NCBI GenBank assembly: GCA_943736015.1
Contig: OX031064.1
Span: 34,647,361 to 34,711,360, forward strand
DNA length: 64,000 bases
DNA from: Tridacna crocea
Lineage: Eukaryota; Mollusca; Bivalvia; Cardiida; Cardiidae
Direction: 5' to 3'
Within the stretch, counting starts at the first letter, position 1, and each line of letters begins with the position of its first letter. Position numbers and translations under genes: made by a program. The notes under the pieces are model-generated. The model did not search any database. It was not told the origin of the DNA and saw only the letters and a list, made by a program, of their open reading frames with translations. Shown here one piece after another: positions 4,741 to 63,455 of this stretch.

Positions 4741-4969
4741 TTAACCCTTTACTCCATAGATACTCATTTCTATGCATTGCTTGCAGGAACCTTTGGAAAA
4801 CATTGTGGCAAAAGGTGAAATTGCTCATGACGAGCAATTTCACCTTTTGCCACAATGTTTTCTACACTATCAAAAGGTATCATATACACATAAGAAACGG
4901 CTTCATCCTTGCTGTTATTTAGGGTCAGTTACAGATACCATACAAATGCCTTATGGGGTAAAGGGTTAA
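4741..4969 (+). mobile_element. Family B TTAA MITE (reference copy)
   Basis: Defines family B: TTAACCCTTTACTCCATAGA at the left, TTATGGGGTAAAGGGTTAA at the right, and a central palindrome from GGAAAACATTGTGGCAAAAG through GCTCATGACGAGC to its complement. The right inner part includes AAAGGTATCATATACACATA. TTAA flanks and CCC/GGG termini suggest mobilisation by a piggyBac-type transposase, which is not encoded here. Confidence 0.88.
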
Positions 4970-4997
4970 ACAACAAAAACACTTAGTCATTTCAAAC

Positions 4998-5180
4998 CTT
5001 TAAATCATGTAATTCAGAATCAGAAACTTCCACATCCTTCAGTAAAGACAAAAGCATTAGATAAGACAAACGACGCCGTTCATACATCCCTCTATGACCT
5101 TCAGGAAGCAGTTTACATATGTGTGTCATGTCATGATGGTGTGACGATATGTTAAGGAGGATGCGACACAATGGTATTCT
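4998..5180 (-). CDS. Exon of the SLF2-like gene with the HHH..LLP block
   Basis: Sixty-one codons between TTTTTTCAG and GTTTGA, phase 0 both ends. The peptide contains RIPLCRILLNISSHHHDM, then CKLLPEGHRGMYERRRLSY and a Leu-rich helix. The His triplet followed by LLP and an Arg-rich helix is the part that most recalls SLF2. The donor GTTTGA is weak by consensus. Confidence 0.75.
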
Positions 5181-5287
5181 CTGAAAAAATAACAGAACAG
5201 GATGCTCATCTGAGAACAGGGTCTGTACAATTCACCAATCATGCTAAATGGCATTGCTATTCTTGAGAAGTCTCTGTGAGCATGGTA

Positions 5288-5507
5288 TTAACCCTTTACC
5301 ACACAATCCAGACTTTTAATGACCCTGAGGAAGGAGACTTCAAAAATCATTGTGGGACAAGGAGAAAATGCTGGTATTCTCCTTTTCCCACAATGTTTTC
5401 TACTCTGCCAAAGTCAAGTTTTTCTTTTTGAGTCAATTCAATTTTGCCATCTACAAATGCTTTCAATTTGGACAAGGCTAAAATTTTGTTGTGTGGTAAA
5501 GAGCTAA
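5288..5507 (+). mobile_element. Family A TTAA MITE (reference copy)
   Basis: Family A: TTAACCCTTTACCACACAAT on the left, TTGTGTGGTAAAGAG-YTAA on the right; left arm AATGACCCTGAG, right arm CTTTCAATTTGGAC and CTAAAATTTTGT; about 225-232 bp. The palindrome is GAAAACATTGTGGGAAAAGG to GCTGGTAACCAGC and back; in this copy it is shortened at the centre (CTGGTATTCTCC). Confidence 0.88.
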
Positions 5508-5660
5508 GGCAGTCTTCAATATCATTTAAGTTACATTGAAGTGAGCAGTGCATCTATCTATGCTTTCCCAGGATTTCTTTCACAAGTATTTTGAAAGCCA
5601 TTGCCAGCCTTTCCAGTGTCTAAAAACAATGATCTGGGCCGAGAAAGGAATGAATCCTGC

Positions 5661-5885
5661 TTAACTCTTTACCAGACGACAAACTTATAGGTTGGTCCAA
5701 CTTAAAAGCATTTGCAGACGATAAAATAAATGTGATTGATAAGTTTGATTTGGGAAGGGTAAAAAAACATTGCGGGAAAAGGAGAAAATGCTGGTTACCA
5801 GCATTTTCTCATTTTCACCACAATGTTTTCAAAAGGCCTCTACTACATGGTCGTTAAAAGTCGTCATTGTGTGGTAAAGGGTTAA
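5661..5885 (-). mobile_element. Family A MITE, inverted
   Basis: Intact TTAA at both ends; core GCTGGTTACCAGC. Lies 110 bases from the next copy in the same intron. Confidence 0.88.
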
Positions 5886-6013
5886 TGGCTATTATCAAAT
5901 CCTTGGAGAGAAATTTGCCAAAATTCATATCTGACCCGGCCACCCCCTAGACTGAGGCCCTGTACCCTATCGTATGAGCTACTGGTCTAAAAGTAACATG
6001 GTTTCTGATTGGC

Positions 6014-6241
6014 TTAACCCTTTCCCAAACAAGCCCTGGTTTTTACGTGTATGCAGTAAAAGTCTTCTGAAAACACTATGGGAAAAGGAGAAATTACTCG
6101 TAACGAGCAATTTCTTCTTTTCCAACAGTGTTTTCTACCTTTTTTGAGAACTTTGTGCCACTTTCTCCAAATCTAAAATTGTCGTCTGCAAACTCTTTCG
6201 GTTTGGAAGAGTCCAAAATTTGTCGTTTGGGAAAAGGTTAA
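6014..6241 (+). mobile_element. Family C TTAA MITE (reference copy)
   Basis: Family C: TTAACCCTTTCCCAAACAAG left, GTCGTTTGGGAAAAGGTTAA right, core TACTCGTAACGAGCA, inner right part TTGAGAACTTTGTGCCA and CAAACTCTTTCGGTTTGGAA. Confidence 0.87.
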
Positions 6242-6494
6242 ATGATGTGCTTGTTCAAGTGATTGTTTTCTCTCCTTTTCTCAGGATACCAGTATATTTG
6301 GAACCATCCCTCATATGCATGCAAATATTCAACCTTGCACAAATTTTGAGTTATTTCTGTTCATAAGACTAAGGCTTCATTTTAAAAATGAATCTAGATC
6401 TATGTAATACAAAAGACCCACAATAGTTATAAATCACAAAATGACCCATATTGTACAAAATATCAAAATTAGCAACTACAGAGCAACTCTTTAC

Positions 6495-6573
6495 CTCCTG
6501 TTCCCAGTCTGTTTCTGAATAACTCTGCATTATCATGTCAATAGAATTATGCAAACTACTTAGTCCAAACAAA
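6495..6573 (-). CDS. Exon of the SLF2-like gene
   Basis: The exon between ATTTCAG and GTAAAG supplies one base to the preceding codon and then 26 codons (starts LFGLSSLHNSIDMIMQS). It links the exons at 7300 and 4998 without a frame break. Confidence 0.72.
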
Positions 6574-6802
6574 CTGAAATTAAAGAAAATACAGAAAACA
6601 ACAGACAATGTAAAGGAATGCATTGTGTAAAAGGAAATATAATTATTCTATTTATTTTCTGACTGGCAGAATTTATACTAAATTCTAAGCTCTCACCAAA
6701 CAAGTCATTGTTAAAGAACAGTAAGAATTTCAATGGTAAAATATAATTTTTGACTATTAACAACCTCAGCAAGATCTACTTTCTCTATATATCTACCATT
6801 AC

Positions 6803-7033
6803 TTAACTCATTAACAAACAAAAAAAAAAAATTGGCTTATCCAACTCGAAAGCATTTGCAGACAACAAAGTAAAAGTGATTAGAAATTTGACATTTGTTT
6901 TGTTAAGGGTAGAAAACATTGTGGGGAAAGGAGAAAATGCTGGTTACCAGCATTTTCTCCTTTTCCCACAATGTTTTCTAAAGGCTTCTTTCTAAAGGTC
7001 GTCAATAGTAGGGATTGTGTGGTAATGGGTTAA
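6803..7033 (-). mobile_element. Family A MITE, inverted
   Basis: An A-run interrupts the left end; palindrome perfect over about 30 bases each side of GCTGGTTACCAGC. Confidence 0.85.
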
Positions 7034-7299
7034 TCATAAAGTTCGGCTCCAGCCAAGTGTCCTAAACAAAGCTGATAGAACTCTGAAGCACATGTACTGG
7101 CAGATTCCAACTTTTTTTGTAATGAAACAGTGACCTTAAACTTACAACATAGCAAGTTCAAAATTTCATTATTTGGTAACGAATTAAATTTTTCAGAATG
7201 TAAGCCTATGTAAGAAAGAGCATCATATACATGTACATTCATACAATTTAAATCTGAAATGCTAAGCCTTTGATTATTAATGTTTATTAGAATACTTAC

Positions 7300-8416: not shown

Positions 8417-8645
8417 TTAACCCATTACCACACAATCCCTTCTTTTGATGCCCCTGAGAAAGAAGCTTTTTGAAAACATTGTGGGAAAAAGAGAAAATGC
8501 TGGTAACCAGCATTTTCTCCTTTTCCCACAATGTTTTCTACCCTTCACAAAACAAATTTCAAATTTTCAGTCACTTTTATTTTGTCGTCTGCAAGTGCTT
8601 TCAATTTGGACCAGTCTAAAGTTTTGTCGTGTGGTAAAGAGTTAA
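8417..8645 (+). mobile_element. Family A MITE
   Basis: Complete, TTAA both ends. Carries GATGCCCCTGAGAAAGAAGC on the left arm. Confidence 0.9.
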
Positions 8646-10468: not shown

Positions 10469-10686
10469 TTAACTCTTCCCCACTTTGAACGACCCTGAGA
10501 TAGAAACCTTTGGAAAACATTGTGGGAAAAGGAGAAAATGCTGGTAACCAGCATTTTCTCCTTTTCCCACAATGTTTTCTACGCTGCTGGAAACAAATTT
10601 CAATTTTTGAGTTACATATAATTTGTCGTCTGCAAGTGCTTCCAATTTGGACCAGTCTACAATTTTGTTGTTTGGTAAAGAGTTAA
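10469..10686 (+). mobile_element. Family A MITE
   Basis: TTAA both ends; the left end is shortened (TTAACTCTTCCCCACTTTGA). Otherwise a perfect palindrome. Confidence 0.87.
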
Positions 10687-10930: not shown

Positions 10931-11029
10931 AAACTAGGATCTGGATTTTAGGGGACAGCCATACAGGCAGACCAACAGTAGGACAGTTGAAAAAAAATTA
11001 AAAAACATAAGGAATCTTGTTATCCCTTT

Positions 11030-11226
11030 ACCAAAGGCCAAAACCTTAGACCAAACCATCCTGAAAGCATGTTCAAGTAACAAATCAGATGTATTGCCAA
11101 CGATGGGATATGTCTCTGATAGAATAGAAAACAATGTGGAAATAAGAGATAAAGCTGGGTACAGCTGGGTACCAGCATTTTCTCTTTTTCCCACTATGTT
11201 TTTTAAGACCTTGTGGTTTGGGGTTA
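11030..11226. mobile_element. Decayed family A MITE, left of a B copy
   Basis: Keeps CCAAAACCTTAGACCAAACC, GCTGGGTACCAGCATTTTCT and a right half ending in GGGGTTATTAA, which is also the left TTAA of the adjacent family B copy. GCTGGGTACA is duplicated at its centre. Confidence 0.55.
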
Positions 11227-11455
11227 TTAAAACTTTACTCCATAGATACTCATTTCTACGCATTGCTTGTAGCAGCCTTAGGAAAACATTGTGGCAAAAG
11301 GTGAGATTGCTCGTGATGAGCAATTTCATCTTTTGTCACAATGTTTTCTATGCTATCGAAAGGTGTCATATACACATAAGAAATGGTTTGATCCTTGTTG
11401 TTATTTAGGATCATTTTGAGATACCATAGAAATGCCTTATGGGGTAAAGGGTTAA
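11227..11455 (+). mobile_element. Family B MITE
   Basis: Complete; core GCTCGTGATGAGC. Confidence 0.87.
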
Positions 11456-17614: not shown

Positions 17615-18102
17615 GGCCTGCAATAAGCGAATCGGACATTCAGACAAATGCATAAAGTGTCAACTCGGATCAGCCTGGGCAGTCCACATGGGCTAATCCG
17701 AAACAAGACTTTCCGTTATTTAGCAATTTTCAGTTTCGCGCAAGTCTACTGTAGCACAAAATCTAATGTTGTCTTAACCCATTACCACACAATAATTCCT
17801 ACTTTTGACGCCCCTGAGAAAGAAGCCTTTAGAAAACTTTGTGGGAAAAGGAGAAAATGCTGGTAACCAGCATTTTCTCCTTTTCCCACAATCTTTTCTA
17901 CCCTTCACAAAACAAATTTCAAATTTTCAGTCACTTTTATTTTGTTGTCTGCAAATGCTTTCGACTTGGACAGGCCTAAAATATTGGTAGTTTGGTAATG
18001 AGTTAAACTGCTGTCTGGGATTAGCCTGTGCAGACAGTGCAGGCTGATATGAGATGACACTTCATGCAAATATCTAAATGCTCTTTTTGCATGTTGCAGG
18101 CC
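17615..18102. mobile_element. Family E element split by a family A MITE
   Basis: GGCCTGCAA at the left and TTGCAGGCC at the right bound two E half-hairpins (GATCAGCCTGGGCAGTCC and GATTAGCCTGTGCAGACAG). Between them a complete family A MITE has landed in a TTAA. Confidence 0.8.
17774..18006 (+). mobile_element. Family A MITE nested in family E
   Basis: Complete copy with TTAA both ends. Removing it and one TTAA restores a contiguous E element, so A transposed after E. Confidence 0.9.
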
Positions 18103-24371: not shown

Positions 24372-24945
24372 ACTGATATAATAACATTGAGACTATCTGT
24401 TAGATCACAATCATGAAGGTTTTGTTAAATCATGTGACCACAGATCAGCACTGCAGCCACTTACAAATTGCTATTAAAATATTGAAATATGTTATATGAT
24501 ACATTTTCAAATCACCTATAGGATAATGATAGAGATGTGCTTTCTTCCAAATGTCTGAATGAAATGTTTTCACTTTAAAGTCAAGACAAGTTGCATTATG
24601 GATAGTTCTCACTCTTTGCTTCAATTCAGGAAGAGAGCTTGTGTGTTTCTTTGCATGGAAACCTGTAAACTAAGGGTGTCACTCAGCACTGTTGCTGTGA
24701 CCTTAAACTGCCTCATACCTGAAATAGGAAATAGGGTTACAGTTTGGATAGCACAACTCTTTGTTATCATTTGGTTGAATTTTAGTATTGTTTGTTTGTT
24801 GGCAAGTATGAATACTGTGTTTGAAGCATACATTAAGTGTTTCAAAAGTTGAGAAATTGTTCCTACTAAGTCTTGTTGTTCGGTCATTTCTCTTGCAGGG
24901 CCTAGATTACATTTATAACAGTAATTAACTTTATGTTCAGAGAAA

Positions 24946-25590
24946 ATGTCAAACAGAAAGAGAAAAGAGGAGAACCTTGAAGAACCAGAGGGCAAGAGGA
25001 GAAACTGCAATGTTGACTCTGACAGCTTTTTGTCCACTGTAACAGGATTCATTTTGAAGGCTGGCTTACAAAAAGTGAGACTGCAGATTTTTGAAAACCA
25101 GTTGAAGAAATTTGGTGGAATTCTATCCACTGATTTAAATCCCTCTGTAACACATCTGATTGTAGATGACAACATGGATATAGACCGACTCTGCAGAATT
25201 CTGAAATTGGAATCACCTCCAGATGATGTTGCCATTGTGAAAACTTCATGGCTGAGTTCATGTTTCAAAGAGAAACAACTTGTAGATGTAGAAGGTTATA
25301 TCCTTGATGTTTCAAAGTTTGATAAGAATTCAGAAGAAACATCAAATGTTGATAAGACAGAAGCAGACATATCAGACAAAAGTCATGTGTCTGCTAAAGT
25401 AAAGTCAGAATTACCTAAAGTTGGAATGATGTTTGGATGCCATGGAAGTAAAGTGAGTCCTAGGAAAACAAAGTCTGACAGTGACAGTGATTATTGTCCA
25501 AGTGATGAGGAACCAGGAACATCTAATTTGTCAGATTTTGAAGAAACCTCATCTACGGTCGATCCTGACAGGCCAGTAAAAAATCTGCCG
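24946..25590 (+). CDS. POLL: POLL exon with BRCT domain
   Basis: The ATG lies five bases after a TTATGTTCAG acceptor, so an upstream 5'UTR exon is likely. The 215 codons begin with a basic stretch (MSNRKRKEE, RKRKEE and EGKRRN suit a nuclear signal). A BRCT domain covers roughly residues 25-120 (FENQLKKFGGIL, VTHLIVDD, VAIVKTSWLSSCFKE, including the conserved Trp). An acidic, Ser-rich linker follows (SDSDSDYCPSDEEPGTS). It ends at CCG/GTAAAG in phase 0. BRCT of Pol lambda binds Ku and XRCC4-ligase IV at DNA ends. Confidence 0.92.
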
Positions 25591-25776
25591 GTAAAGTTAT
25601 GTCACATTAATCTTTGTACTGTCACTTTGTTGCTCAGCTAGAAAGGCTTTGTTGGTAGACTGCAGTATGATATTAATCTACAGTGTTCATAAAAACAAAA
25701 GACTTTTACTGTAGATGCTTAAAAACACAGGTTTGTTTGGGAAAGGGTTTCTAAGGAATTGCCAAAAAAAAAAAAA

Positions 25777-29905: not shown

Positions 29906-30041
29906 TTAATCGTTTACCAAACAACCCCTGGTTTTAATGACCCTGGAAATAAATTCAGTTTCTAATTTACGTTTAATGTGTCACCTGCAAGTGCTTTCAA
30001 TTTAGACCAGTCTTAAATTTTGTTGTTTGGTAAAGAGTTAA
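29906..30041 (+). mobile_element. Family A MITE with the palindrome deleted
   Basis: Both ends are present, TTAATCGTTTACCAAACAAC to TTGTTTGGTAAAGAGTTAA, but the whole hairpin is missing (GACCCTGGAAATAAATTC). Its right TTAA is the left TTAA of the next copy. Confidence 0.83.
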
Positions 30042-30508: not shown

Positions 30509-30802
30509 AAGAAAGTCTTTGGTTGACTGGTCATATTTTCTGTATAAATCTAGTGGTAGATTACAGGTATCATTCTGATAGATAAATATCACAGTCTATT
30601 GCAATCATGGTCTACTGACCAATAAGCAAGTTTGGCATGCAGGGCAATCATGGTCCTCATTGATTGTTTAATTTAGGCTACGATAAAAGCAAGAAAGTAC
30701 ATGTAGTGAAAAGACCTAGGATTGGTTAAATTTCCATATTTCATCATTCACTCTGGCAAGAAAACACTGTAGTATGTAAATTTTTCATCATAATATTTCA
30801 AG

Positions 30803-30982
30803 GAAGCAATGGCACTACCAGGTGTTGGTAAAAGACTTGCAGAAAAAATATGGGAAATAGCAGAAAGCGGACAACTGAGAAAATTAAATGAGTTTAAAGC
30901 CAATGATGATATAAGAATAATAGAGACATTCATGAATGTATGGGGAGCTGGTGCCACTACAGCTAGAACCTGGTACCAGCAG
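30803..30982 (+). CDS. POLL: POLL exon, helix-hairpin-helix of the lyase domain
   Basis: Sixty codons between ATTTCAAG and GTAAGT. It begins EAMALPGVGKRLAEKIWEI (the first HhH motif; the Lys of GKRLAEK is in the lyase site region) and ends with NVWGAGATTARTWYQQ (the second HhH, fingers start). Phase 0 both ends. A 32-base part of it is nearly repeated inside a MITE 410 bases downstream. Confidence 0.95.
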
Positions 30983-31158: not shown

Positions 31159-31469
31159 TTAACCCATTACCACACAACGACGACCTTCAACACCCCAAAA
31201 AGAGAAGGCTTTTGAAAACATTGTGGAAAAAGGTATTGGGAAAAGACTTGCAGAAAAAATATGCAGAATATGCTGGTAAAAAGCATTTTCTCCTGTTCCC
31301 ACAATGTTTTCTCCCATTACCACACAATCCCTACTTTTGATGACACGGAGAAAGAAGCCTTAAAAAAAAATATTGTGGTTACCAGCATTTTCTCTTTTTC
31401 CCACAATGTTTTCAAAAGGCTTCTTTTTCAGGGCTGTAAAAAACCAGCGATTGTTTGAGAAAGGGTTAA
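31159..31469 (+). mobile_element. Composite family A MITE carrying a POLL exon fragment
   Basis: A left end (TTAACCCATTACCACACAAC) leads to a palindrome whose left arm is interrupted by about 30 bases nearly identical to the POLL exon at 30821-30852. At 31313 the right half switches into a second left end (CCCATTACCACACAATCC), and the composite closes with AAAGGGTTAA. Two copies have recombined. Confidence 0.82.
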
Positions 31470-35266: not shown

Positions 35267-35495
35267 TTAACCCTTTACCAAAGAATCCCTGGTTTTTACG
35301 ACCCTGAGATAGAAGCCTTTTGAAAACATTGTAGGAAAAGGAGAAAATGCTGGTAACCAGCATTTTCTCCTTTTCCCACAATGTTTTCTACCCTGCTGGA
35401 AACAAATTTCAATTTTTGGGTCTCATTAATTTTGTCGTCTGCAAATGCTCTCAATTTGGACCAGTCTAAAATTGTGTCATGTGGTAAATGGTTAA
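35267..35495 (+). mobile_element. Family A MITE
   Basis: TTAA both ends, near-perfect palindrome. Confidence 0.9.
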
Positions 35496-36349: not shown

Positions 36350-36643
36350 ATAAACCCTTTCCCAAATAATCCCTGGATTTTATGACCCTTAGATAGAAGC
36401 CTTCTGAAAACATTGTGGGAAAAGTAGAAAATGCTGGTTACCAGCATTTTTTCCTTTTCCCACAATGTTTTCTATTCTTCTACAGTCAAGTTTCAACATT
36501 CGAAATTTGATTTGTAAAGGGTAGAAAACATTGTGGGAAAAGGAGAAAATGCTGGCTACCAGCATTTTCTCCTTTCCCGCAATGTTTTCTAAAGGCATCT
36601 TTTTAAGGGCATCAAAAGTATAGATTGTGTGGTAATGGGTTAA
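36350..36643. mobile_element. Chimera of two family A MITEs in opposite orientation
   Basis: A forward left half with its palindrome (36351-36475) is joined at CTTCTACAGTCAAGTTTCAA to an inverted copy with a second palindrome ending GTGTGGTAATGGGTTAA. Two palindromes in one TTAA-bounded unit. Confidence 0.75.
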
Positions 36644-36773: not shown

Positions 36774-36979
36774 TTAACCCTTGATGATAAAATATTAGCT
36801 TTGTCTTAATTGAAATCATTTCAATGTAGTTCAAGTGGTGCAATCTTGCTATGGTAGAAAACATTGTAGAAAAAAAGAGAAAATGCTGGTTACTAGCATT
36901 TTCTCCTTTTTCCACAATGTTTCCAAAAGGCCACTTCTACAGCATCCTGAAAACCTGGGATTATTTGGTAAAGGGTTAA
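36774..36979 (-). mobile_element. Family A MITE, inverted
   Basis: TTAACCCTTGATGATAAAAT to TTATTTGGTAAAGGGTTAA; palindrome slightly mutated at the centre (TTACTAGC). Confidence 0.8.
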
Positions 36980-37178
36980 GTAAAAAGTTTGTTTGGTTTG
37001 TTAAATTTATTTTAAGGTAGAAAACATTGTAGAAAAAAGAGAAAATGCTGGTTACGAACATTTTCTCCTTTTTCCACAATGTTATCAAAAGCCCACTTCT
37101 ACAGCATCTTGAAAACCAAGGATTATTTGGGAAAGGGTTAAAAAGTTTGTTTGGTTTGTTTGATTTATTTTACCGTTT
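36853..37178 (+). repeat. ~163-bp tandem duplication of a half MITE plus flank
   Basis: GGTAGAAAACATTGTAGAAA to GTTTGGTTTGTTAAATTTAT is repeated from 37016 with about 93 percent identity. The duplicated unit contains the palindrome, the right end and 40 bases of flank. Confidence 0.8.
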
Positions 37179-38914: not shown

Positions 38915-39145
38915 TTAACTCTTTACCAAACAACAAAATTTTAGACTGGTTCAAATTGAAAGCATTTGCAGCTGACAAAATAAACCTAACTCAAAAATTG
39001 AAATTTGTTTCCAGCTGGGTAGAAAACATTGTGGGAAAAGGAGAAAATGCTGGTTACCAGCATTTTCTCCTTTTCCCACAATATTTTCAAAAGCTTTCCT
39101 TCTCGGGGTTGTTAAAAGTCGGGATTGTGTGTGGTAAAGAGTTAG
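38915..39145 (-). mobile_element. Family A MITE, inverted
   Basis: Left TTAACTCTTTACCAAACAAC, right GTGTGGTAAAGAGTTAG. Confidence 0.87.
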
Positions 39146-42107: not shown

Positions 42108-42336
42108 TTAACCCTTTACCCCATAAGGCATTTCTATGGTATCTCTAAATGACCCTAAATAACAGCAAGGATGAAGCCATTTCTCATATGTATATGACAC
42201 CTTTTGATAGCATAGAAAGCATTGTGACAAAAGGTGAAATTGCTCGTCACGAGCAATTTCACCTTTTGCCACAATGTTTTCCAAAGGCTCCTACAAGCAA
42301 TGAGTAGAAATGAGTATCTATGGAGTAAAGGGTTAA
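42108..42336 (-). mobile_element. Family B MITE, inverted
   Basis: TTAACCCTTTACCCCATAAG to TATGGAGTAAAGGGTTAA; perfect GCTCGTCACGAGC core. Confidence 0.88.
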
Positions 42337-44667: not shown

Positions 44668-44794
44668 GTATGTTCAATTTTCAGCTTTTATTTGATAAGG
44701 TAATTACTAATTAGGTATTATATAGGGTGTGAATGACGCTTCTATTTTTCTCCAGTTAAATTGATTTTTTTTTTAGTTTATACATCTCATCTGT

Positions 44795-45025
44795 ATAAAC
44801 CCTTCACTCCACAGATACTCATTTTGACGTATCACCAACAGACAGCTTTTGAAAACAATGTGGGAAAAGGAGAAATTGCTCGTAACGAGCAATTTCTCCT
44901 TCTCACACAATGTTTTCCACTCAATCAGATATTTGTATCCTCATTTGGACATATTTTTGACATCATACCTTTAATTGCTGCTGAAATGTAAGAGCCTCAA
45001 ATTGGCATATCAGGTAAAAGGTTAA
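44795..45025 (+). mobile_element. Family D TTAA MITE (reference copy)
   Basis: Family D: left ACCCTTCACTCCACAGATAC, GACAGCTTTTGAAAACA arm, core GCTCGTAACGAGC, then CACTCAATCAGATATTTGTA, CATTTGGACATATTTTTGAC and right CAGGTAAAAGGTTAA. The left TTAA is mutated to ATAA. Confidence 0.82.
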
Positions 45026-47712: not shown

Positions 47713-47787
47713 TTGATGAATTTTCTGCTTGTTTTAGGATGGTTTTATCTCATGATTTAGCCGGTTCCAGAGACAATAATATGGCCT

Positions 47788-48036
47788 GCAACACACGAAA
47801 AAGGGCATTCGGACATTTGCGTACAGTGTCATCCCGGGTCAGCCTGCGCAGTCCACACAGGCTAATCCGAGACGACACTTTCCGTTCTTATGTTATTTTC
47901 TGTTTTGTGCAAGTCTGCTTTAGCACAAACCGAATTCAGTCGTAAAAGCCGTCTCTGATTAGCCTGTGCGGAGTGCGCAGGCTGATCTGAGACGACACTT
48001 TACGGAAATGTCCGAATGCCCCTTTTCGTGTGTTGC
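47788..48036. mobile_element. Family E element, best preserved
   Basis: About 35-bp inverted ends: GCAACACACGAAAAAGGGCA then TTCGGACATTTGCG, mirrored to GTGTGTTGC. Two inner hairpins of CAGCCTGCGCAGTCC type. Confidence 0.82.
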
Positions 48037-48377
48037 TAGCCAATTACATGAATACTAGTATCATGCGACGCCTTTCCCGGTATAATGGATTACGTAGATG
48101 CGTTAAACCTCTTTTCTCTATACGCCGGTCACCTTTGTTATCTTTCGCATATTTTCTTAGTTGCATAACTGTAATAAATCAGGGACGAAATGTCAGCCGG
48201 TATGTTAGATAAATTGTTCGGCACAAAGTATAGAAACTAGAGAACTAGGCCGAACGTGCCCAACATTTTTTGGTACAAATTTTCGAAGAAATTTTAGAGA
48301 GCTAAGGTAGTGTAGATCACGGTCTTACTGCAAAGATTGTGCGATTGAGTCCGATCGTGAATAATAGATTTTTGATA

Positions 48378-48628: not shown

Positions 48629-48990
48629 TTTAACCCTTCATCTAACAGTACTGGTTTTAACCCTTTACCTGATATGCCAATTTGTGGCTCTTCCATTTTA
48701 GCAGCAAATAAAAATATGATGTCAAAAATATGTACAAATGAGGATACAAGTATCTGATTGAGTGGAAAACATTGTGGGAAAAGGAGAAATTGCTCGTTAC
48801 GAGCAATTTCTCCTTTTCCTACAATGTTTTCAAAAGCTGTCTGTTGTTGATACGGCAAAACGAGTGTCTATGGGGTAAAGGGTTAACCGATCCTTAAATA
48901 AAGGGCTTTTAAAATCATTTGTAGGAAAAGGAGAAAATGCTGTTAATGCTCCTTACCTACAACGTTTTCTGCCCTGTGTAGGACGAATTC
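48629..48990 (+). mobile_element. Family A MITE split by a family D MITE
   Basis: TTAACCCTTCATCTAACAGT..GGTTTTAA precedes the D copy; CCGATCCTTAAATAAAGGGC, GGAGAAAATGCTGTTAATGC and CTACAACGTTTTCTGCCCTG follow. Confidence 0.65.
48657..48886 (-). mobile_element. Family D MITE, inverted, nested in family A
   Basis: Complete with TTAA both ends: TTAACCCTTTACCTGATATG to TATGGGGTAAAGGGTTAA, core GCTCGTTACGAGC. Confidence 0.87.
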
Positions 48991-49007: not shown

Positions 49008-49234
49008 TTAACCCTTATCTAGCCAAGCAAGTGATATGAGATTTTTGAGCCAATAGTAAAAAAAACCTCAAAGTTTGCTATAACAAAGGTTATTATTATT
49101 TTTTTTTTTGGAGAAAATATGTCCTTATCGGAGAGTGTAGATCAAAGATCAGACTGCACGTTTTGTACAGTCTGATCTTGATCTACATTGTCTGCAATAG
49201 GTCAGTGAGTGAAGCTTAGTAGCCTAAGGGCTAA
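49008..49234. mobile_element. Family F TTAA element
   Basis: Left TTAACCCTTATCTAGCCAAG; hairpin GAGTGTAGATCAAAGATCAG against CTGATCTTGATCTACATTGT; right AGTAGCCTAAGGGCTAA. Confidence 0.8.
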
Positions 49235-49674
49235 TTACCCGTTTATATTGTTTTCAAAATTGACAAGTCAGAAGTTTTGTCTGCCTTGGTGAAAAGGGTT
49301 ATATACAGTTATTTTATTGCCCAAAAATAGTGAGTAAACCCAGTTGACCCTTCGTTAGTTATAGGAGTATTAGAGACTTGGGAACAATTCTAGTGCAGAA
49401 TAAATTACCTTATTGACAATCGGTTACAGTCAGTAATGCTATCTAAATCCATAGGCTGCTGAGCGCTTCGCACTGGCTATTTGCAGACAGTGTAGATCAG
49501 GATCAGACTGCACAAAACGCTTTTCATTTTTCAGTTATATCTTGGCAGCCAGTCCATTTCTAATCTGTATGTGTAATGTCATTTAAGAATATCTCACAAA
49601 ACATTTTTTTCTCCGCAGCCACTAGCTGTTTTTCCACGCATACATTGTTGAACGATGTATAGCGATAAAATGAG

Positions 49675-50040
49675 AATGAATGAATCCTGTCGCAAGTTTG
49701 GCGATGGGATAATGAATGAATCCTGTCGCAAGTTTACCGATGAGACTCGAATGAATGAATCCTGTTGCAAGTTTGGCGATGGGATAATGAATGAATGAAT
49801 CCTGTCGCAAGTTTACCGATGAGACTCGAATGAATGAATCCTGTCGCAAGTTTGGCGATGAGACAAGAGTGAATGAATCCTGTCGCAAGTTTACCGATGA
49901 GACTAGAGTGAATGAATCCTGTCGGCAAGTTTAACGATGAGACTAGAGTGAATGAATCCTGTCGGCAAGTTTACCGATGAGACTAGAATGAATGAATCCT
50001 GTCGCAAGTTTACCGATGAGACTAGAATGAATCCTACCGC
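49675..50040 (+). repeat. ~39-bp minisatellite
   Basis: About ten units of GAATGAATCCTGTCGCAAGT followed by TTACCGATGAGACTAGA or TTGGCGATGGGATA. Two sub-types alternate at the left. Confidence 0.88.
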
Positions 50041-51449: not shown

Positions 51450-54400
51450 GTCTTTTTCCTGGCAACCAAACTGACACTGGTAAGCCCACAACAGTCCTTC
51501 CGCCGATAAAATCTGGTTGCAACCAAACTGACGCTGGTTTGCCAAAAGTATAATACTTCCGCCGATAAAATTTGGTTGCATCCAAACTGACACTGGTTTG
51601 CCCACAACAGTCCTTCCGCTAATAAATTTTTGGTTGCGACCGAACTGACGCTGGTGTGCCCACAACAGTCCGTCCGTTAATAAAATTTGGTTGCAACCGA
51701 ACTGAAGCTGGTGTGCCAAAAGTATAATTCTTCCGCTGATAGAATTTTGGTTGCAAGCCAACCAAACTGACGCTGGTGTGCCAAAAGTAGTTCTTCCGCT
51801 CATAAAATTTGGTTGCAACCAAACTGACACTGGTGCGCTCACAACAGTCTATCCACTAATAGAATTTGGTTGCAACCAAACTGACGCTGGTGCGCCCACA
51901 ACAGTCCTTTCGCTAATAAAATTTGTTTGCAACCAAACTGACACTGGTGTGCCAAAAGTATAATTCTTCCGCTAATAAAATTTGGTTGCAACCAAACTGA
52001 CGCTGGTGTGCCTACAACAGTCGTTCTGCCGATAAAATCTGGTTGCAACCAAACTGACGCTGGTGTGCCAAAAGTATATTTCTTCCGCTCATAAAATTTG
52101 GTTGCAACCAAACTGACACTGGTGTGCCCACAACATTCCTTCCGCCAATAAAATTTGGTTTGCAACCAAACTGCATACCACCGCTAGTGTGCCAAAAGTA
52201 TATAGTTCTTAGGCTGATGAAATTCGGTTTCAACCAAACTGACGCCGGTGTGCCAAAGGTATAGTTCTTCCGCTAATAAGATTTGATTGCAACCAAACTG
52301 GTGCTAGCGTGCCCACAACAATCCTTCCGGCGATAAAATCTGATTGCAACCAAATTGACTCCGGTATGCCAAAAGTATAGTTCTTCCGCTTATAAAATTT
52401 TGTTGCAACCAAACTGACACTGGCGTGCCCGCAACAGTCCTTCCGTTAATAAAATTTGGTTGCAAGCAAACTGACGCTGGTGTGCCAAAATTAAAGTTCT
52501 TCCGATGTTAATATTTGCTAGCAACCAAACTGGCACTGATGTGCCCACAACAGTCCTTCCGCTAATAAAATTTGGTTGCAACCAGACTGACGCTGGTGTA
52601 CCAAAAGTATAGTTCTTCCGCTGTAAAATTTGATTGCAACCAAACTGACGCTGGTGTGCCAAAAGTGTAGTTCTTCCGTATATAAAATTTGGTTGCAACC
52701 AGACTGACGCTGGTGTGCCAAAAGTATAAATCTTCCTCTGATAAAATTTGGTTGCATCCAAACTGACGCTGGTGTGCCCACAACAGTCCTTCCGCTAATG
52801 AAATTTGGTAGCAACTAAACTGACGCCGGTGTGCCAAAATTATAGTTCTTCCGCCGATACTATTTGGTTGCAACCAAACTGACGCCGGTGTGCCAAAAGT
52901 ATAGTCCTTCCGCCGATAAAATTTGGTTGCAACCAAACTGACGCCGGTGTGCCAAAAGTATGATTCTTCCGCTGATAAAATTTGGTTGCACCCAAACTGA
53001 CGCCGGTCTGCCAAAAGAATAGTTCTTCCGGTAATAAAATTTGGTTGCAACCAGACTGACACTGGTGTGCCCACAACAGTCATTCCGCCGATAAAATCTG
53101 GTTGTTGTGCCAAAAGTATAGTTCTTCCTCTGATAAGACTTGGTAGCAACCAAACTGACGCCGGTGTGCCAAAAGTATAGTTTTTCCGCCGATAAAATTT
53201 GGTTGCAACCAAACTGACGCTGGTGTGCCCACAACAGTCCTTCCGCGAATAATATTTTGGTTGCAACAAAACTGACACTGGTGTGCCCACAACAGTCACT
53301 CCACTAATAAAATTTGGTTGCAACCAAACTGACGCTGGTGTGCCAAAAGTATAGTTCTTCCGCCGATAAAATTTGGTTGCAACCGAACTGACGCTGGTGT
53401 GCCCACAACAGTCCTTCCGCCGAAAAAAATCTGGTTGCAACCAAACTGACGCTGGTGTACCAAAAGTATAGTTCTTCCGCCATTAAAATTTGGTTGCAAC
53501 CAAACTGACGCTGGTGTGCCCACAACAGTCCTTCCGCCGAAAAAATCTGGTTGCAACCAAACTGACGCTGGTGTGCCCACAACAGTCCTTCCGCTTATAA
53601 AATTTGGTTACCACCAAACTGACGCTGGTGTGCCAAAAGTATAATTCTTCCGCTGAGAAGATTTTGGTTGCAAATAAACTGACGCTGATGTGCCCACAAC
53701 AGTCCTTCCGGTAATAAAATTTGGTTGCAACCAAACTGACGCTGGTATGCCAAAAGTATAGTTCTTCCGCCGATAAAATTTGGTTGCAACCAAACTGACG
53801 CTGGTATGCCAAAAGTATAATTTCCTTCGCCGATAAAATTTGGTTGCAACAAAACTGACGCTGGTGTGCCTACAACAGTGCTTCCACTTATAAAATTAGA
53901 TTGCAACCAAACTGACGCTGGTGTGCCAAAAGTATCATTCTTCCGCCGATAAAATCTGGTCGCAGCCAAACTGCCGCTGGTGTGCCAAAAATATAGTTCT
54001 TCCGCCGATAAAATCTGATCGCAACCAAACTGCCGCTGGTGTGCCAAAAGTATAGTTCTTCCGCCGATAAAATCTGGTCGCAACCAAACTGACGCTGGTG
54101 CGTTAAAAGTATAATTTTTCCGCCGTTGATATTTTGTTGCATCCAAATTAACGCTGGTGCGCCAAAAGTATTGTTCTTTGGCTGATAAAATTTGGTTGCA
54201 ACCAAACTGATCCTTGTGTGCCCACAACAGTCCTTCCGCCGATAAAATTTGCTTGCAACTAAACTGACGCTGGAATGCCAAACCTTTAATTCTTCCGCTG
54301 ATAAAATTTTGTTGCAACGAAACTGACGCTGGTGTGCCCACAACAGTCCTTCTACCAATAAAAATTGGTTGCAACCAATCTGAAACTGATGTGCCAAAAG

Positions 54401-55240
54401 TATACTTCTTCCGCTGATGAAATTTTGGTTGCAACCAAACTGACGTTGGTGTGACAGAATTATAATATTTCCGCTGATAGAATTTGGTTGCAACAAAACT
54501 AGCGCTGGTGTGCCCAAAACAGTCCTTCCGCTGATAAAATTTGGTTGCTACCAAACTGACACTGGTGTGGTGTGCCCACAACAGTCCCTCTGCTGATATT
54601 TTTGCTTGCATGGAAACTGACGCTGGTGTGCAAAAAGTATAGTCTTCCCTCTAAAATTTTTTGTTCTACGGAAACTAACACTGGTTTGGTCGCAACTGTT
54701 GTTACTCTGAAAATTTGGATGGAGGGAAAGGGACGCCTACAGTGAACCCTCTTTTGAAAAATATTGATTGCATTCAAACTGAAGCAGATGTGCTCACATC
54801 CTCGGATACCCCGGGGTCTCCCTATTTGCTACGCTACATCGACCCCTGGGACAATTAATTGAATTTCCCTCGCTTTACCGCTGGCCGAATGCTGGCTTTT
54901 CATTGGTTCCATCATCATTTTGTGATGGGCGAGTGGACTGTACGCTATGACGTTTCGTATCGATTTTCGGCGGATGATTCAAAGTTTTATTAGTCAATTG
55001 TCCCAGGGTCGATGTAGCGTTGCAAATAGGGAGACCCTGGGGTATCCCAGGATGATGTGCCCACAGCAGTCCTTACTCTGAAATATTTTGATTGCATGAA
55101 AACTGACACTGGTATGCCAACAACAGTCGTTTATCTGAAAAATTTTGATTGCATTGAAAATGAAGCTAGTGTACCCACAACAGTCTTTACTCTGAAAAAT
55201 TTTGGTTGCACAGGAACTGACGCTGGTGTGCCTACAGTGG
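51450..55240. repeat. 57/59-bp minisatellite array, two unit types
   Basis: More than 50 units of GTTGCAACCAAACTGACGCT then GGTGTGCC, followed by either CACAACAGTCC (57 bp) or AAAAGTATAGTTC (59 bp), then TTCCGCCGATAAAATTTG. The two types are interspersed. Units decay towards both edges, most at 54.6-55.2 kb. The minus strand is largely stop-free in all three frames, giving open stretches of 292 and 338 codons that I regard as non-genic because the 59-bp units shift frame. A MULE-like element interrupts it at 54797. Confidence 0.93.
54797..55054. mobile_element. MULE-like MITE with ~60-bp inverted ends inside the minisatellite
   Basis: Left CATCCTCGGATACCCCGGGG, right CCCTGGGGTATCCCAGGATG; the arms extend through ATTTGCTACGCTACATCGAC. 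Flanked by ATGTGCTCA (54788-54796) and ATGTGCCCA (55055-55063), one mismatch. 258 bp. Confidence 0.88.
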
Positions 55241-56299: not shown

Positions 56300-56875
56300 C
56301 TGTCTCCCCGGAGCATAACTCAAAACATATTTGAGGTGTAAACACGATACTTCACAGTTTGGTAGATCTCATCAAGGAGAATTGCAGTATACAATAAATA
56401 TAAATTTTGATTGCATAGTTCAGGAGTTATTGCCCTTTGTTATTTTTCTTACTTAAATTTTGTCCAGAGCATAAATAAAAAACTATTAGAAGTGTAGACA
56501 TGATAATTCACAGGTGCATAGATTATATTAAGGAAAAATACGCTGCTCAAGATTCGTAACTCTTGGTTGCATAGTCAAGGAATTATTGACCTTTGTTATT
56601 TGTTCTCACTTTAATTTTGTTCAGTGCGTAACTTGAAACGACATGAGATGTAAATATGAAATTTCACCTGTTGATAGGTAACATTGATGAGAAGTGCCGT
56701 GTACAATAACCATAACTTTCGTGCGTAACTTGAAACGACGTGAGATGTAAATATGAAATTTCACCTGTTGATAGGTAACATTGATGAGAAGTGCCGTGTA
56801 CAATAACCATAACTTTCAGTGCCATGAATTAGAAGTTGTTGCCCTTTGTTGTTTCCCATGCTTGTTTTGTTTTCA
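56300..56875 (+). repeat. ~180-bp diverged tandem repeats with a recent 95-bp duplication
   Basis: Units share GCATAACTCAAAACATAT, TTCACAGGTGCATAGAT, AACTCTTGGTTGCATAG and TTATTGCCCTTTGTTATT. Within them 56628-56722 and 56723-56818 are almost identical (CGTAACTTGAAACGACATGA to CAATAACCATAACTTTC). Confidence 0.78.
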
Positions 56876-56899
56876 TACTAAGTTTAGACCATAACCATA

Positions 56900-57347: not shown

Positions 57348-57779
57348 TTAACCCTTATTCTGCTGATCAACTCTTTACCAAACAATCCTGATTTTTAACT
57401 GAAAGAGAATACCTTTGAAAACATTGTGGGAAAAGGAGAAAATGCTGGTAACCAGCATTTTCTCCTTTTCCCACAATGTTTTCTTCCCTATCAAAGATAT
57501 AAATCATCATTTCAGCTACATCTAATTTGTCGTCTGTAACTGCTTTCAAGTTCGTAGAGTTGAAAATTTTGTTTTTTGGTAAAGAGTTAACTAAATTAAA
57601 GTTTTCATTTCGATAATATAACCCAAAATACTGCCATTTCAAATTTGTGATTTTGGGAATAATATATCTTTATCGGACAGTGTAGATCCAAGATCAGACT
57701 GCACGTTCTGTGCAGTCTGATCTTGATCTACACTGTCCGCAAAAGGTCAGTGAGTCGCGCTTAACAGCCTAAGGGTTAA
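57348..57779. mobile_element. Family F element split by a family A MITE
   Basis: Left TTAACCCTTATTCTGCTGAT, right ACAGCCTAAGGGTTAA, hairpin AGATCAGACTGCACG / CGTTCTGTGCAGTCTGATCT. Confidence 0.83.
57366..57590 (+). mobile_element. Family A MITE nested in family F
   Basis: ATCAACTCTTTACCAAACAA to TTTTTTGGTAAAGAGTTAA; perfect palindrome. It landed 18 bases inside the F left end. Confidence 0.88.
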
Positions 57780-57859: not shown

Positions 57860-58008
57860 AATCATGAGGTAGACTATATTGTCACATGACTTGCAGAAAA
57901 GATAATGAGGTAGAGTTGTCACATGACTTGCAGAAAGGATAATGAGGTAGAGTTCTCACATGACTTGCAGAAAGGATAATGAGGTAGAGTTCTCACATGA
58001 CTTACTGA
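57860..58008 (+). repeat. ~37-bp minisatellite, four units
   Basis: Units of CACATGACTTGCAGAAAGGA plus TAATGAGGTAGAGTTCT. Confidence 0.87.
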
Positions 58009-58653
58009 AACGTTGACAACTTAACACCCCCCCCCGCCCAACTTTCGACCCACGTCAGCCTTGGCGGACTGTGCTGGTTGATAAACTTTGATACTTGCAG
58101 ATGGAATAAATTACCTTTTTCTGTAGCATGGTTGGTCTATATTGTGCGAAAGATAAGGTAAAAAGCGGAAACAGCAATGTAAAACGGAAAGGATCACAAA
58201 TTTTCAGTAAGGGAGGTGGGTTGGGGGGGGTTATTCCACTTAAGGACAGTTTTGAACGTAGGACAACTGCACAAATGATTCCGATGCTCTATGATACGAT
58301 CTTTGCAAGCGAAAAACTAGGAAACTGGGAAAAGGGTGGAACACTTAATACCAAATTTGGGCCAAAATGGTCCGGACATGGCCGGTTCGCCGATGACGGC
58401 CTTGCACCGACCGCAATATTAAAATAAGGTGCCATGGAAAACTGTTTTCCAAAAGAAAAATACAAAATAAAACAAAGCCAAGTTAGAACCAGGAATTTGT
58501 TTATCTACACGTAAGCATTCGTGGGCAGCAGAGTGACATTGTATTGTCAACAACTGCTAGAACGTTGGTCTTATTCGACAAAACAGGTGTTACGCCATCT
58601 GAGACCGTATTGGCACAGAATACTTGGAGTTTATCCGCTAAAATGAAAATATT

Positions 58654-59747: not shown

Positions 59748-59822
59748 AACAATAGCAAAACATTTCGACTCGTGTCAGCCTGCACAGGCTGACATGAGTC
59801 GAAAGGATTTGCTATTGTTTGA
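59748..59822. repeat. Long hairpin related to family E
   Basis: AAACAATAGCAAAACATTTC and CGACTCGTGTCAGCCTGC pair with the mirrored GACATGAGTCGAAAGGATTT and GCTATTGTTT. Confidence 0.78.
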
Positions 59823-60991: not shown

Positions 60992-61209
60992 TTAACCCTT
61001 GTCCTGATAAAAAAGTCAAATGAAAAATTCTGGTCGATAGGATAAATCTGAATAATTCTACATGAATCTCAAATGTATACTTTGAAGAGAAATGTCTACA
61101 TATCGGACAATGTAGATCAAAGATCAGACTGCACGTTCTGTGCAGTCTGATCTTGATCTACATTATCCGCAAAAGGTCAGCGAGTCGCGCTTAACAGCCT
61201 AAGGGTTAA
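60992..61209. mobile_element. Family F TTAA element (reference copy)
   Basis: TTAACCCTTGTCCTGATAAA to ACAGCCTAAGGGTTAA. Hairpin CAATGTAGATCAAAGATCAG against CTGATCTTGATCTACATTAT, then GGTCAGCGAGTCGCGCTTAA. CCCTT/AAGGG termini inside TTAA place F near the A-D group although the interior is unrelated. Confidence 0.85.
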
Positions 61210-61505: not shown

Positions 61506-61509
61506 GCCA

Positions 61510-62015
61510 ACTTAAATTGCCGGCCTTCACCATTTTTTTACAGTTTATTCTTCTGTCAGCGACTATGTGTTACCAGAACCATAATAATATCTTAACTTAA
61601 GGTGGTATGAGCCAAATTTGCCTGCAATTTCTCTCTCTTCCCCCCCCCTACGAGTCACAATGTACTTGCTCTTGTCTTGTTTAGGTTTCTTTTAAATTTA
61701 GTTGGGGAAAAAACGACCAGTTTGACTTACGGTATTTAAATTATAATTATGATTATTTGGTAAATTAAAGTTAACTTTTTATCATTTACAGTATTCCAGA
61801 AATAAGTTGATGTAAAACGAAAGAGGATTTACTGTCTATTGTGACGTATCGTATTGCAATTTACAATACCGGGTTTTCCCAGGTGTCATTAGGACAGTAT
61901 TGACGTCACAATGCGGTTTTCTGCTCGATAAATCTTAGGAATGTGAAACGTTATCTACCGTATCGTAAAATTCTATTGATTGCTGTTATCTAATATCCAA
62001 ATGATTATAGCCATG
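61510..62015. other. No gene recognised
   Basis: AT-rich with a short CCCCCCC tract at 61640. Nothing else seen. Confidence 0.5.
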
Positions 62016-62017
62016 AT

Positions 62018-62097
62018 TTAACCCTTAACCAAATAATCCCGAATTTTAATGACCCTTAGGAAAAATGCCGTTGAAAACATTGTGGGAAAAGAATACT
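62018..62097 (+). mobile_element. Left half of a family A MITE
   Basis: TTAACCCTTAACCAAATAAT to AACATTGTGGGAAAAGAA, broken inside the palindrome arm. Confidence 0.75.
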
Positions 62098-62185
62098 GAT
62101 GTGTTCGTCAAACAACCTGTCTACAAGATTCAAAATTCGTATTGTTTATTCATGGTTTGTTTCTCCATTCCTCCCTCATTCCCCC

Positions 62186-62224
<39 letters not shown>

Positions 62225-62235
62225 TCTCTCTCTTT
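62186..62235 (+). repeat. (CT)n microsatellite
   Basis: TCTCTCTC run of about 34 bases plus a shorter one. Confidence 0.9.
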
Positions 62236-62499
62236 CTGTTTTTCTTTTTTTCCAGCCTCACAGACTATAGAGTCAGCCTTCTAATAGATTTTGCACCAAG
62301 AATGAATTTAGCTATTACACTGTTTCTCTACATTGCTTTTACCTAAGAATTAAAAAAAGAAACGGAAAGAACAGCGCTCGACATAAAACTGGGCCATTTT
62401 ACATACTTGACAAATTTTTGACCTAGTGATCGATATTTTTTATCGGCTGTAAACCTGACCGCAAGCTATTGTGGTATCCATGAAGCTGCAGGCTGGCAA

Positions 62500-62592
62500 A
62501 TTTAGGGACCTTTTGCGGACAGTGTGGGTTAACATCAGACGGCACAAAACGTGCAGTCTGATCTTGGATCCACACTGTCCGATAGACGGATT
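62500..62592. mobile_element. Partial family F element
   Basis: Hairpin CAGACGGCACAAAACGTGCA / GTCTGATCTTGGATCCACAC. Confidence 0.6.
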
Positions 62593-62754
62593 TAGAATAC
62601 TATCACCCACATTTATCTGGAGCTCTGTGGGCTAATCTAGCAGAGTAAGACAAAACTTATACATACCGGTTGTCGGACAAATAAACGAAAAGCAAAAGAC
62701 TTTGATTTCGTGTTCCATCAGACAGCTTTATAGTCAGTCGTCTTATGAACCTCC

Positions 62755-62982
62755 TTAACCCTTTCCCAAACGACAAACTTTTGGACTAAACCAAATTGAA
62801 AACATTTGCAGACGACAATTCAGCTCTTGCTGAAAAGATGATTTCTGTCTACGATAGGGTAGAAAACATTGTGGGAAAAGGAGAAAATGCTGGTTACCAG
62901 CATTTTCTCCTTTTCCCACAATGTTTTCAAAAGCTACTATTCCAGACCCGTAAAAACCAGGGATTGTTTGGGAAAGGGTTAA
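62755..62982 (-). mobile_element. Family A MITE, inverted, C-like ends
   Basis: TTAACCCTTTCCCAAACGAC to TTGTTTGGGAAAGGGTTAA with a perfect A palindrome; same sub-type as 11955. Confidence 0.9.
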
Positions 62983-63221
62983 CTCAAGAAATGCCTCCTT
63001 AACTCGAGACCAGACGATAAAAAGTCAGATTTGTCTAAAGCGGACAAAAATGATCACAAGCACCGTATCACTAAAGCAGCACAATCAGAGAACGCAAGTG
63101 ATTTTTCAAAGTTCATCAGTGACCTAAACCTTTGACCCGTGTGATCCATAAACAATAGGGCACCTCCATGGGTCGTGAGCAACACTTGTATAAAGTTTCA
63201 GAGTCCTAGATCAAATGGCTT

Positions 63222-63455
63222 TTAACCCTTTACCCCATAAGGCATTTCTATGGTAGATATATCTCTAATTGATCCTAAATTACAGCAATAATGAAGCCGT
63301 TTCTTATGTGTATATGACACCTTTTGATAGTCTAGAAAACATTGTGGCAAAAGGTGAAATTGCTGGTCACGAGCAATTTCACCTTTTGCCATAATGTTTT
63401 CCAAAGGCTCCTACAAACAATGAGTAGAAATGAGTATCTATGGAGTAAAGTGTAG
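63222..63455 (-). mobile_element. Family B MITE, inverted
   Basis: TTAACCCTTTACCCCATAAG left; right end TATGGAGTAAAGTGTAG, TTAA lost. Confidence 0.85.

What the first reader, a model, noticed from the sequence alone, without database searches (positions are those of the whole stretch)
4741..63455. Extremely dense swarm of related TTAA MITEs, about one per kb
I count about 50 near-complete and about 20 partial copies in 64 kb, in four related families plus family F. All have TTAA flanks and CCCTTT/AAAGGG-type ends, as piggyBac-superfamily targets and termini would predict. They occupy around a fifth of the window and nearly every intron of two genes, yet spare the exons. No transposase is visible. 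Density of this kind from one mobilisation system would be notable.
Basis: partly seen in the sequence, partly recalled or inferred. Interest (0 to 1): 0.75.

Follow-up and report, generated by a model that had tools for sequence, protein, structure and literature searches.

The report
Dense TTAA mobile-element fossils with palindrome cores
This stretch of animal-like DNA is packed with about a hundred whole and broken copies of tiny, gene-less jumping elements that share a mirror-image stretch of DNA in the middle, and that stretch has changed much less than the rest of each copy, so it probably matters for how the elements move.

Summary
The swarm is real and slightly denser than reported. 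Profiles of three families (F1-F3) give 100 matches in 64 kb (55 span >=85% of the ~229-bp unit, 45 partial), 26.5-27% of the window, against 0 in the reversed window. Five nested insertions serve as empty sites and show precise TTAA insertion. These are non-autonomous, piggyBac-type TTAA elements; with no genome held, a partner transposase and genome-wide counts could not be tested.

In 40 of 40 scorable F3 copies it is less diverged than the flanks (medians 5.6% vs 19.8%). Between families cores are 85-90% identical, far flanks about as alike as shuffled sequence, and arm changes are paired above chance (48 vs 12.1). Family G, also TTAA-flanked, has the same layout with a different hairpin core. 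Coral CMITEs (PMC2872659) are the precedent for a core more conserved than the termini, but their published 60-bp core holds no such palindrome. New variant of a known kind; the palindrome's role is inferred.

The parts
4741..4969 (+). Family F2 full copy (229 bp, TTAA both ends)
4796..4862 (.). 67-bp palindrome of that F2 copy; 1 arm mismatch; DNA fold -36.8 kcal/mol
35267..35495 (+). Family F3 representative full copy, TTAA both ends
10513..10579 (.). F3 core identical to consensus (67/67), arms fully complementary, DNA fold -37.2 kcal/mol
8417..8645 (+). F3 full copy, core 1.5% and flanks 9.5% diverged
62755..62982 (-). F3 full copy: core 0% diverged, flanks 28% diverged
44796..45025 (+). 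Family F1 full copy
48657..48886 (-). Family F1 full copy nested in an F3 copy at its internal TTTTAAC site (precise TTAA insertion)
11227..11455 (+). Family F2 full copy nested in an F3 copy at the same internal TTAA (precise)
11020..11258 (-). Approximate span given to the host F3 copy of the F2 insertion; its near-end piece continues after 11455
17774..18006 (+). F3 copy inserted precisely in a G+C-rich interspersed repeat; three empty paralogues in the window
57367..57590 (+). F3 copy (core 67/67) nested in a family G element
38915..39145 (-). F3 copy nested in a family G element
42108..42336 (-). F2 full copy
63222..63455 (-).
60992..61209 (-). Family G full copy (218 bp, TTAA both ends) with a different hairpin core
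49008..49234 (-). Family G full copy (227 bp; near end TTAG)
57348..57779 (-). Family G copy interrupted by the F3 copy 57367-57590
61104..61170 (-). Family G core stretch as folded, DNA fold -30.8 kcal/mol
36351..36643 (.). Head-to-head element: two near ends and two palindromes, no far end
31159..31469 (.). Second, more decayed head-to-head arrangement
36853..37172 (-). Tandem duplication (162 bp x 2, 90%) of a partial F3 copy with flank
29906..30041 (+). F3 copy lacking the core (profile positions 44-138 absent)
24925..25638 (+). DNA polymerase lambda BRCT exon ORF, no MITE match inside
30797..30982 (+). DNA polymerase lambda helix-hairpin-helix/fingers segment
34553..34753 (+). DNA polymerase lambda palm segment

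Best explanation
A group of non-autonomous, piggyBac-type TTAA elements (MITEs), about 229 bp long, amplified from several source copies and moved by a transposase encoded elsewhere. Shown: precise TTAA insertion, fixed length, and a core palindrome far better conserved than the flanks, with arms that changed together between families. Inferred: the machinery needs one 'near' end carrying the 67-bp palindrome plus a short CYCTTT tip at the other end, so the palindrome was held by selection in the source copies while the far flank drifted or was exchanged. The likeliest role is a symmetrical docking site for a dimeric transposase (or host cofactor), comparable to the palindromes that piggyBac-family C-terminal domains bind. 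The sequence data do not show what binds it, or whether it acts as duplex or as hairpin.
For: TTAA ends 58+58 vs 4.6 left-type per shuffle on average. 100 matches, 0 in the reversed window. Five nested insertions with a single four-base site in the empty paralogue or consensus. Core less diverged than flanks in 40 of 40 scorable F3 copies, medians 5.6% vs 19.8%, Wilcoxon 3.6e-8. Consensus lengths 230/229/229 with the core at position 56 in each. Between families: core 85-90% identical; far flank 0.58-0.63 vs shuffled means 0.59-0.60; near flank compared in register 0.46-0.62 vs shuffled 0.26-0.27, p 0.004 or less. Paired arm changes 48 vs 12.1 (sd 3.1) in 50 of 61 cores; in F3 alone 22 vs 6.3. 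Family G, with a different core, repeats the pattern: near 0.81-0.97, core 0.91-0.94, far 0.49-0.55 among 3 copies. piggyBat carries palindromes on its left end only, bound by C-terminal-domain dimers (passages of PMC11707139).
Against: No transposase and no genome to search. The piggyBac and piggyBat palindromes in the passages seen are 14-19 bp, much shorter than 67 bp. CC[C/T]T, the hallmark quoted in PMC2872659, is met at only 17 of 39 left and 9 of 43 right F3 ends. Within F3 the near flank is hardly better kept than the far flank (0.79 vs 0.775). Far flanks of F2 and F3 keep a weak in-register likeness (0.38 vs 0.28, p 0.015; the other two pairs p 0.21), so they are not wholly unrelated. 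The near flank compared with gaps does not exceed the best of 200 shuffles (0.62-0.68 vs maxima 0.68-0.70). One copy lacks the core (29906-30041), possibly a deletion after insertion. Only 2 of 24 variants private to one copy are on both arms, and after leaving out copies with the AATTG-type core the paired count is 12, below the highest of 2000 whole-arm permutations (13; mean 4.4), so the pairing rests mainly on a few family-level events.
Confidence: 0.6

Rival explanations
1. The core is kept alike by gene conversion between copies and by template-switch correction between arms (hairpins promote breaks and copying), with no selection for transposition.
For: Palindromes are known substrates for such correction (recalled). 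Arm changes are paired above chance, and 4 of 42 F3-flanked cores carry the F1/F2-like T at position 26 on both arms, which conversion could explain. The conserved block is not cut exactly at the palindrome: it runs on about 11 bases to the left and 6 to the right before dropping.
Against: Only 2 of 24 private variants are on both arms, so correction is not evident in resident copies. The block still ends within about a dozen bases of the palindrome on either side, where long conversion tracts should reach further into the flanks.
Confidence: 0.22
2. The core is simply the shared ancestral internal sequence of young families; nothing about it is functional, and the flanks were replaced by recombination.
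For: Gapped far flanks of F1, F2 and F3 are no more alike than shuffled sequence; MITEs are known to pick up new internal sequence (recalled).
Against: Within F3, where flanks still align, the core is less diverged in 40 of 40 scorable copies, and the same changes appear on both arms between families. F2 and F3 far flanks keep a weak in-register likeness, which favours drift over replacement.
Confidence: 0.12
3. Another TTAA superfamily (Kolobok) moves them.
For: Kolobok also makes TTAA duplications, and its KolobokP lineage is especially rich in bivalves (passages of PMC9587614).
Against: Kolobok termini are 5'-RR and YY-3'; these mostly begin CC or CT and end GG or AG.
Confidence: 0.07
4. 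The hairpin acts as RNA (small-RNA precursor or protective transcript fold), and that is what is conserved.
For: The core hairpins fold strongly as DNA strands.
Against: No Rfam family at gathering score in the window. Arm mismatches show no strand bias towards G.U pairs: 40 vs 42 in 44 cores.
Confidence: 0.08

Closest known systems
CMITE, piggyBac/TTAA MITEs of Acropora corals (Wang et al. 2010, PMC2872659; parts 1-3 of 4 read)
   Same: TTAA duplication, CCCTTT-type ends in most families, several families sharing an internal region more conserved than the termini, tandem copies, insertion at a TTAA inside another element, a copy in a presumed intron.
   Different: CMITEs are ~100 bp, not ~229 bp; the published 60-bp part of their 75-base core has at best 5-base arms, no better than shuffled. 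Here the core is a 67-bp palindrome with paired changes, and density is about 1.6 matches per kb.
piggyBat and piggyBac ends (PMC11707139, passages only)
   Same: Asymmetric ends; in piggyBat imperfect palindromes on the left end only, within 120 bp of the tip, bound by dimers of the transposase C-terminal domain.
   Different: Those palindromes are 14-19 bp. No transposase is available here to test binding.
Kolobok / KolobokP (PMC9587614, passages only)
   Same: TTAA duplications; KolobokP is rich in bivalves.
   Different: RR and YY termini; KolobokP has long terminal direct repeats of 450-660 bp, longer than these whole elements.

Membership tests
piggyBac-superfamily MITE | TTAA target-site duplication with precise insertion | tested here: met
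   Five nested insertions with single-site empty counterparts; 33 of 46 F3 copies with <=1 mismatch to TTAA at both ends
piggyBac-superfamily MITE | CC[C/T]T terminal motif in the TIR | tested here: inconclusive
   F2 consensus and the G1 copy have CCCT on both sides, F1 CCCT/CCTT; F3 ends are mostly CCCT or CTCT, motif met at 17 of 39 left and 9 of 43 right ends
piggyBac-superfamily MITE | Short, homogeneous size, no coding capacity | tested here: met
   230/229/229-bp consensuses; 55 of 100 matches >=85% of that length; a 229-bp unit has no room for a transposase
piggyBac-superfamily MITE | Autonomous partner with the same ends and a piggyBac transposase | not testable with these tools
   No genome held; no transposase domain in 40 of 150 ORFs scanned
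CMITE | Internal region more conserved between families than termini | tested here: met
   Core 0.85-0.90; left TIR 0.79-0.86, right TIR 0.64-0.79, far flank 0.58-0.63. The two 14-base TIR values are close to what shuffles can reach
CMITE | ~100 bp length and the published core sequence | tested here: not met
   229-230 bp; the published 60-bp core has no comparable palindrome
Kolobok | 5'-RR and YY-3' termini | tested here: not met
   Ends mostly CC/CT and GG/AG

The most novel reading that the evidence does not exclude
TTAA elements in this lineage are mobilised through a one-sided end built on a ~67-bp palindrome whose symmetry, not its letters, is what selection keeps: two families with different core sequences (F and G) have the same layout, and their far ends are nearly free to change. 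That would be a distinct class of piggyBac-type cis-requirement, letting one transposase carry many different flanks and helping to explain the density.
Probability: 0.3. Interest if true: 0.65.

Novelty: new variant of a known kind. Interest (0 to 1): 0.5.

Why it matters
Why some MITE families reach huge numbers is an open question, and the CMITE paper left the role of a conserved core unexplained. Here the core is a long palindrome whose arms changed together, with the same layout in a second family, so the question becomes a direct test: bind, delete or unpair the palindrome in a transposition assay. It also gives a compact signature for finding the autonomous partner.

Tried and rejected
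Homology between F and G: near flank plus core of F1 and F2 aligned with G better than ordinary shuffles (5 and 0 of 1000 reached the score), F3 did not (66 of 1000). Palindromes double-count, so the test was repeated with shuffles rebuilt as palindromes: p = 0.016, 0.032 and 0.185; arm alone p = 0.19, 0.15 and 0.73. I do not claim that F and G are related.

An ungapped palindrome search on two G copies gives only 15-16-base arms, because one-base gaps interrupt the stem; the ~31-base arms rest on the folded structure and the alignment.

RNA-level constraint: no G.U strand asymmetry (40 vs 42), no Rfam family at gathering score. Arm correction in resident copies: 2 of 24 private variants paired, so not supported.

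Other sources: the core 27-mer and looser core patterns gave 0 matches in IMG/VR and 0 in GTDB contigs; one F3 copy gave no match in plasmid or phage records. Core and repeat words searched as text gave six papers, none on transposons by title. Seven paper searches in all: no listed title or abstract start names a palindrome-core TTAA MITE; apart from the three papers opened, these were seen as listings only, and the library omits most subscription papers and Repbase.

Empty sites: of 53 elements tested, 28 had a blast match across the junction. I inspected 16 alignments for 13 elements: 5 are clean, 8 are not.

Rows dropped: 11 of 61 cores with more than 9 changes in an arm were left out of the covariation count; 6 of 46 F3 copies were left out of the core/flank comparison for missing columns; the arm-mismatch count used 44 of 61 cores.

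The second gene was not identified: an ORF at 44473-44700 has only a weak NIF match below cut-off and no structure match better than E 0.14. The organism is unknown; a mollusc is only my recollection of similar G+C-rich repeats.

The odds of the conversion rival were raised a little and those of the flank-replacement rival lowered.
Full report
What was checked. No whole genome is held for this window, so the evidence comes from its 64 kb and from the literature. The window is 36% G+C and animal-like: a DNA polymerase lambda gene lies on the + strand, with a BRCT exon at 24925-25638, a fingers segment at 30797-30982 and a palm segment at 34553-34753, kilobases apart.

The swarm. TTAA followed by a CCCTTTACC-like end occurs 58 times as a left end and 58 times as a right end, against 2-8 left ends in each of ten shuffles. 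Forty paired elements cluster into one large family (F3), two smaller ones (F2, F1) and outliers. Profiles of F1-F3 find 100 non-overlapping matches, 8 of them with E>1e-5, covering 26.5-27.1% of the window; 55 span at least 85% of the unit and 45 are partial. The same profiles find nothing in the reversed window. Adding family G brings coverage to 28.6%. Density is uneven: 4 matches start in 48-56 kb, where there are minisatellite arrays, and 22 in 32-40 kb. None of the three polymerase segments tested holds a MITE base, as expected if exonic insertions are removed.

Precise insertion without another genome. Because the elements land in each other and in other repeats, other copies serve as empty sites. 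Of 53 elements, 28 had a match across the joined flanks. Of 13 elements inspected, five are clean: 17774-18006 in a G+C-rich repeat with three empty paralogues; F2 11227-11455 and F1 48657-48886, both at the internal TTAA (ACTTTTAACGACC) of F3 copies; and 57367-57590 and 38915-39145 in family G copies. In each the flanks resume after a single four-base site. The paralogues of the 17774 site carry GTAA, GTCA and ATAA there, consistent with TTAA being needed in the copy that was hit.

The palindrome. The three family consensuses hold a palindrome at positions 56-122: two 33-base arms around one base, matching at 33, 32 and 30 of 33 positions in F3, F2 and F1. F1 rests on two copies only. Three F cores fold at -32 to -37 kcal/mol as single-stranded DNA, against -5.8 for one neighbouring flank stretch. 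A scan for palindromes with 20-base arms (17 or more paired) found 55, of which 50 lie in F1-F3 matches, and none in one shuffled window.

It is constrained. In 40 of 40 F3 copies with enough columns (of 46), the core is less diverged from consensus than the flanks: medians 5.6% and 19.8%, Wilcoxon p 3.6e-8. Copy 62755-62982 has an unchanged core with flanks 28% diverged. Since a dead copy should decay evenly, the extra flank divergence most likely built up in source copies while the core was held. The conserved block is a little wider than the palindrome: consensus frequency stays near 0.7-0.9 for about 11 bases on its left and 6 on its right, then drops. Between families the core is 85-90% identical, while the far flanks aligned with gaps are at shuffled level (0.58-0.63 vs means 0.59-0.60). 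Compared in register without gaps, the near flank is clearly alike (0.46-0.62 vs 0.26-0.27, p 0.004 or less); the far flank is not for two pairs (p 0.21) and weakly so for F2-F3 (0.38 vs 0.28, p 0.015). Total length and core position are the same in all three to within one base.

The arms change together. Using 50 of 61 cores, 48 changes are the same on both arms, against 12.1 (sd 3.1) when right-arm letters are dealt out anew; the highest of 2000 permutations was 23 by column and 29 by whole arm. Within F3 it is 22 against 6.3 (highest 16 and 19). Without copies that carry the AATTG-type core it is 12 against 4.4 (highest 11 and 13), so there the signal is modest. Much of it is a handful of family-level changes, at positions 14, 21, 26 and 31, and only 2 of 24 variants private to one copy are on both arms. 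So pairing was kept in the sources, not repaired in resident copies.

A second family with the same layout. Family G (full copies 60992-61209 and 49008-49234; 57348-57779 interrupted by an F3 copy; several partial) is a 218-227-bp TTAA element with CCCTT ends and a core hairpin of about 31-base arms and a 5-base loop, beginning 36 bp inside one end. Its near flank and core are 0.81-0.97 and 0.91-0.94 identical among three copies, its far flank 0.49-0.55. A fair control does not establish that F and G cores are homologous (p 0.016-0.185), so the shared layout may be convergent or very old.

What it most likely is. TTAA insertion and C-rich ends point to piggyBac-type mobilisation. Kolobok, the other TTAA superfamily in the passages seen, has purine-purine 5' ends (PMC9587614, passages). 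The CC[C/T]T hallmark is met only in part: F3 right ends are most often CTCT. The mechanism I favour is that the near end plus palindrome is the end the transposase grips, and the far end needs little beyond its tip. piggyBat offers a parallel: palindromes on the left end only, within 120 bp of the tip, bound by dimers of its C-terminal domain (PMC11707139, passages), though each is far shorter than 67 bp. Within F3 alone the near flank is hardly better kept than the far flank, which speaks against a strong version of this. Two head-to-head copies with two near ends and no far end (36351-36643, 31159-31469) fit a self-sufficient near end, but could be rearrangements. That the palindrome binds transposase is inference.

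What is known. The closest precedent is CMITE in corals (PMC2872659, parts 1-3 of 4): TTAA MITEs, mostly with CCCTTT ends, and an internal region more conserved between families than the termini, of unexplained role. This case shares that, but the unit is twice as long and its core is a long palindrome, whereas the published 60-bp CMITE core has none beyond chance. Seven paper searches listed no title or abstract start naming a palindrome-core TTAA MITE, but Repbase and most subscription papers were not searched, so these families may already be catalogued.

Limits. One window; no transposase found (40 of 150 ORFs >=75 aa scanned); no copy number; organism unknown.

Noticed in passing
60992-61209, 49008-49234, 57348-57779, 38763-38916, 62504-62587 and smaller pieces: Family G: a further TTAA element family with its own hairpin core of about 67 bp; its near half is conserved and its far half is not.
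   Followed up: yes
25723-26892: ORF of 390 aa with a GIY-YIG domain directly downstream of the polymerase lambda BRCT exon, like a Penelope-like element remnant (the Penelope name is recalled).
   Followed up: partly
51462-54659: Large minisatellite, 59-bp unit with 116-176-bp periods, readable as long repetitive ORFs on the - strand; no MITE match starts inside it in the list.
   Followed up: no
49673-50032: 39-bp/79-bp tandem array (about 9 copies of the 39-bp unit).
   Followed up: no
2329-2606, 47779-48042, 40893-41042, and the flanks of 17774-18006: G+C-rich interspersed repeat with inverted arms and a hairpin around GCCTGCGCAGTCCGCGCAGGC; one copy is the host of an F3 insertion.
   Followed up: partly
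36351-36643 and 31159-31469: Head-to-head MITE arrangements with two near ends and two palindromes (or remains of them) and no far end.
   Followed up: partly
36853-37172: Tandem duplication (162 bp, 2 copies, 90%) of a partial F3 copy plus flank, recalling the tandem CMITE arrays.
   Followed up: no
59763-59804 and 47655-47699: Two further near-perfect hairpins (CAGCCTG...CAGGCTG centre) outside the TTAA families.
   Followed up: no
43383-43880, 56620-56822, 57882-58010: Other tandem repeats: 166 bp x 3, 97 bp x 2.1 (97%), 37 bp x 3.5 (95%).
   Followed up: no
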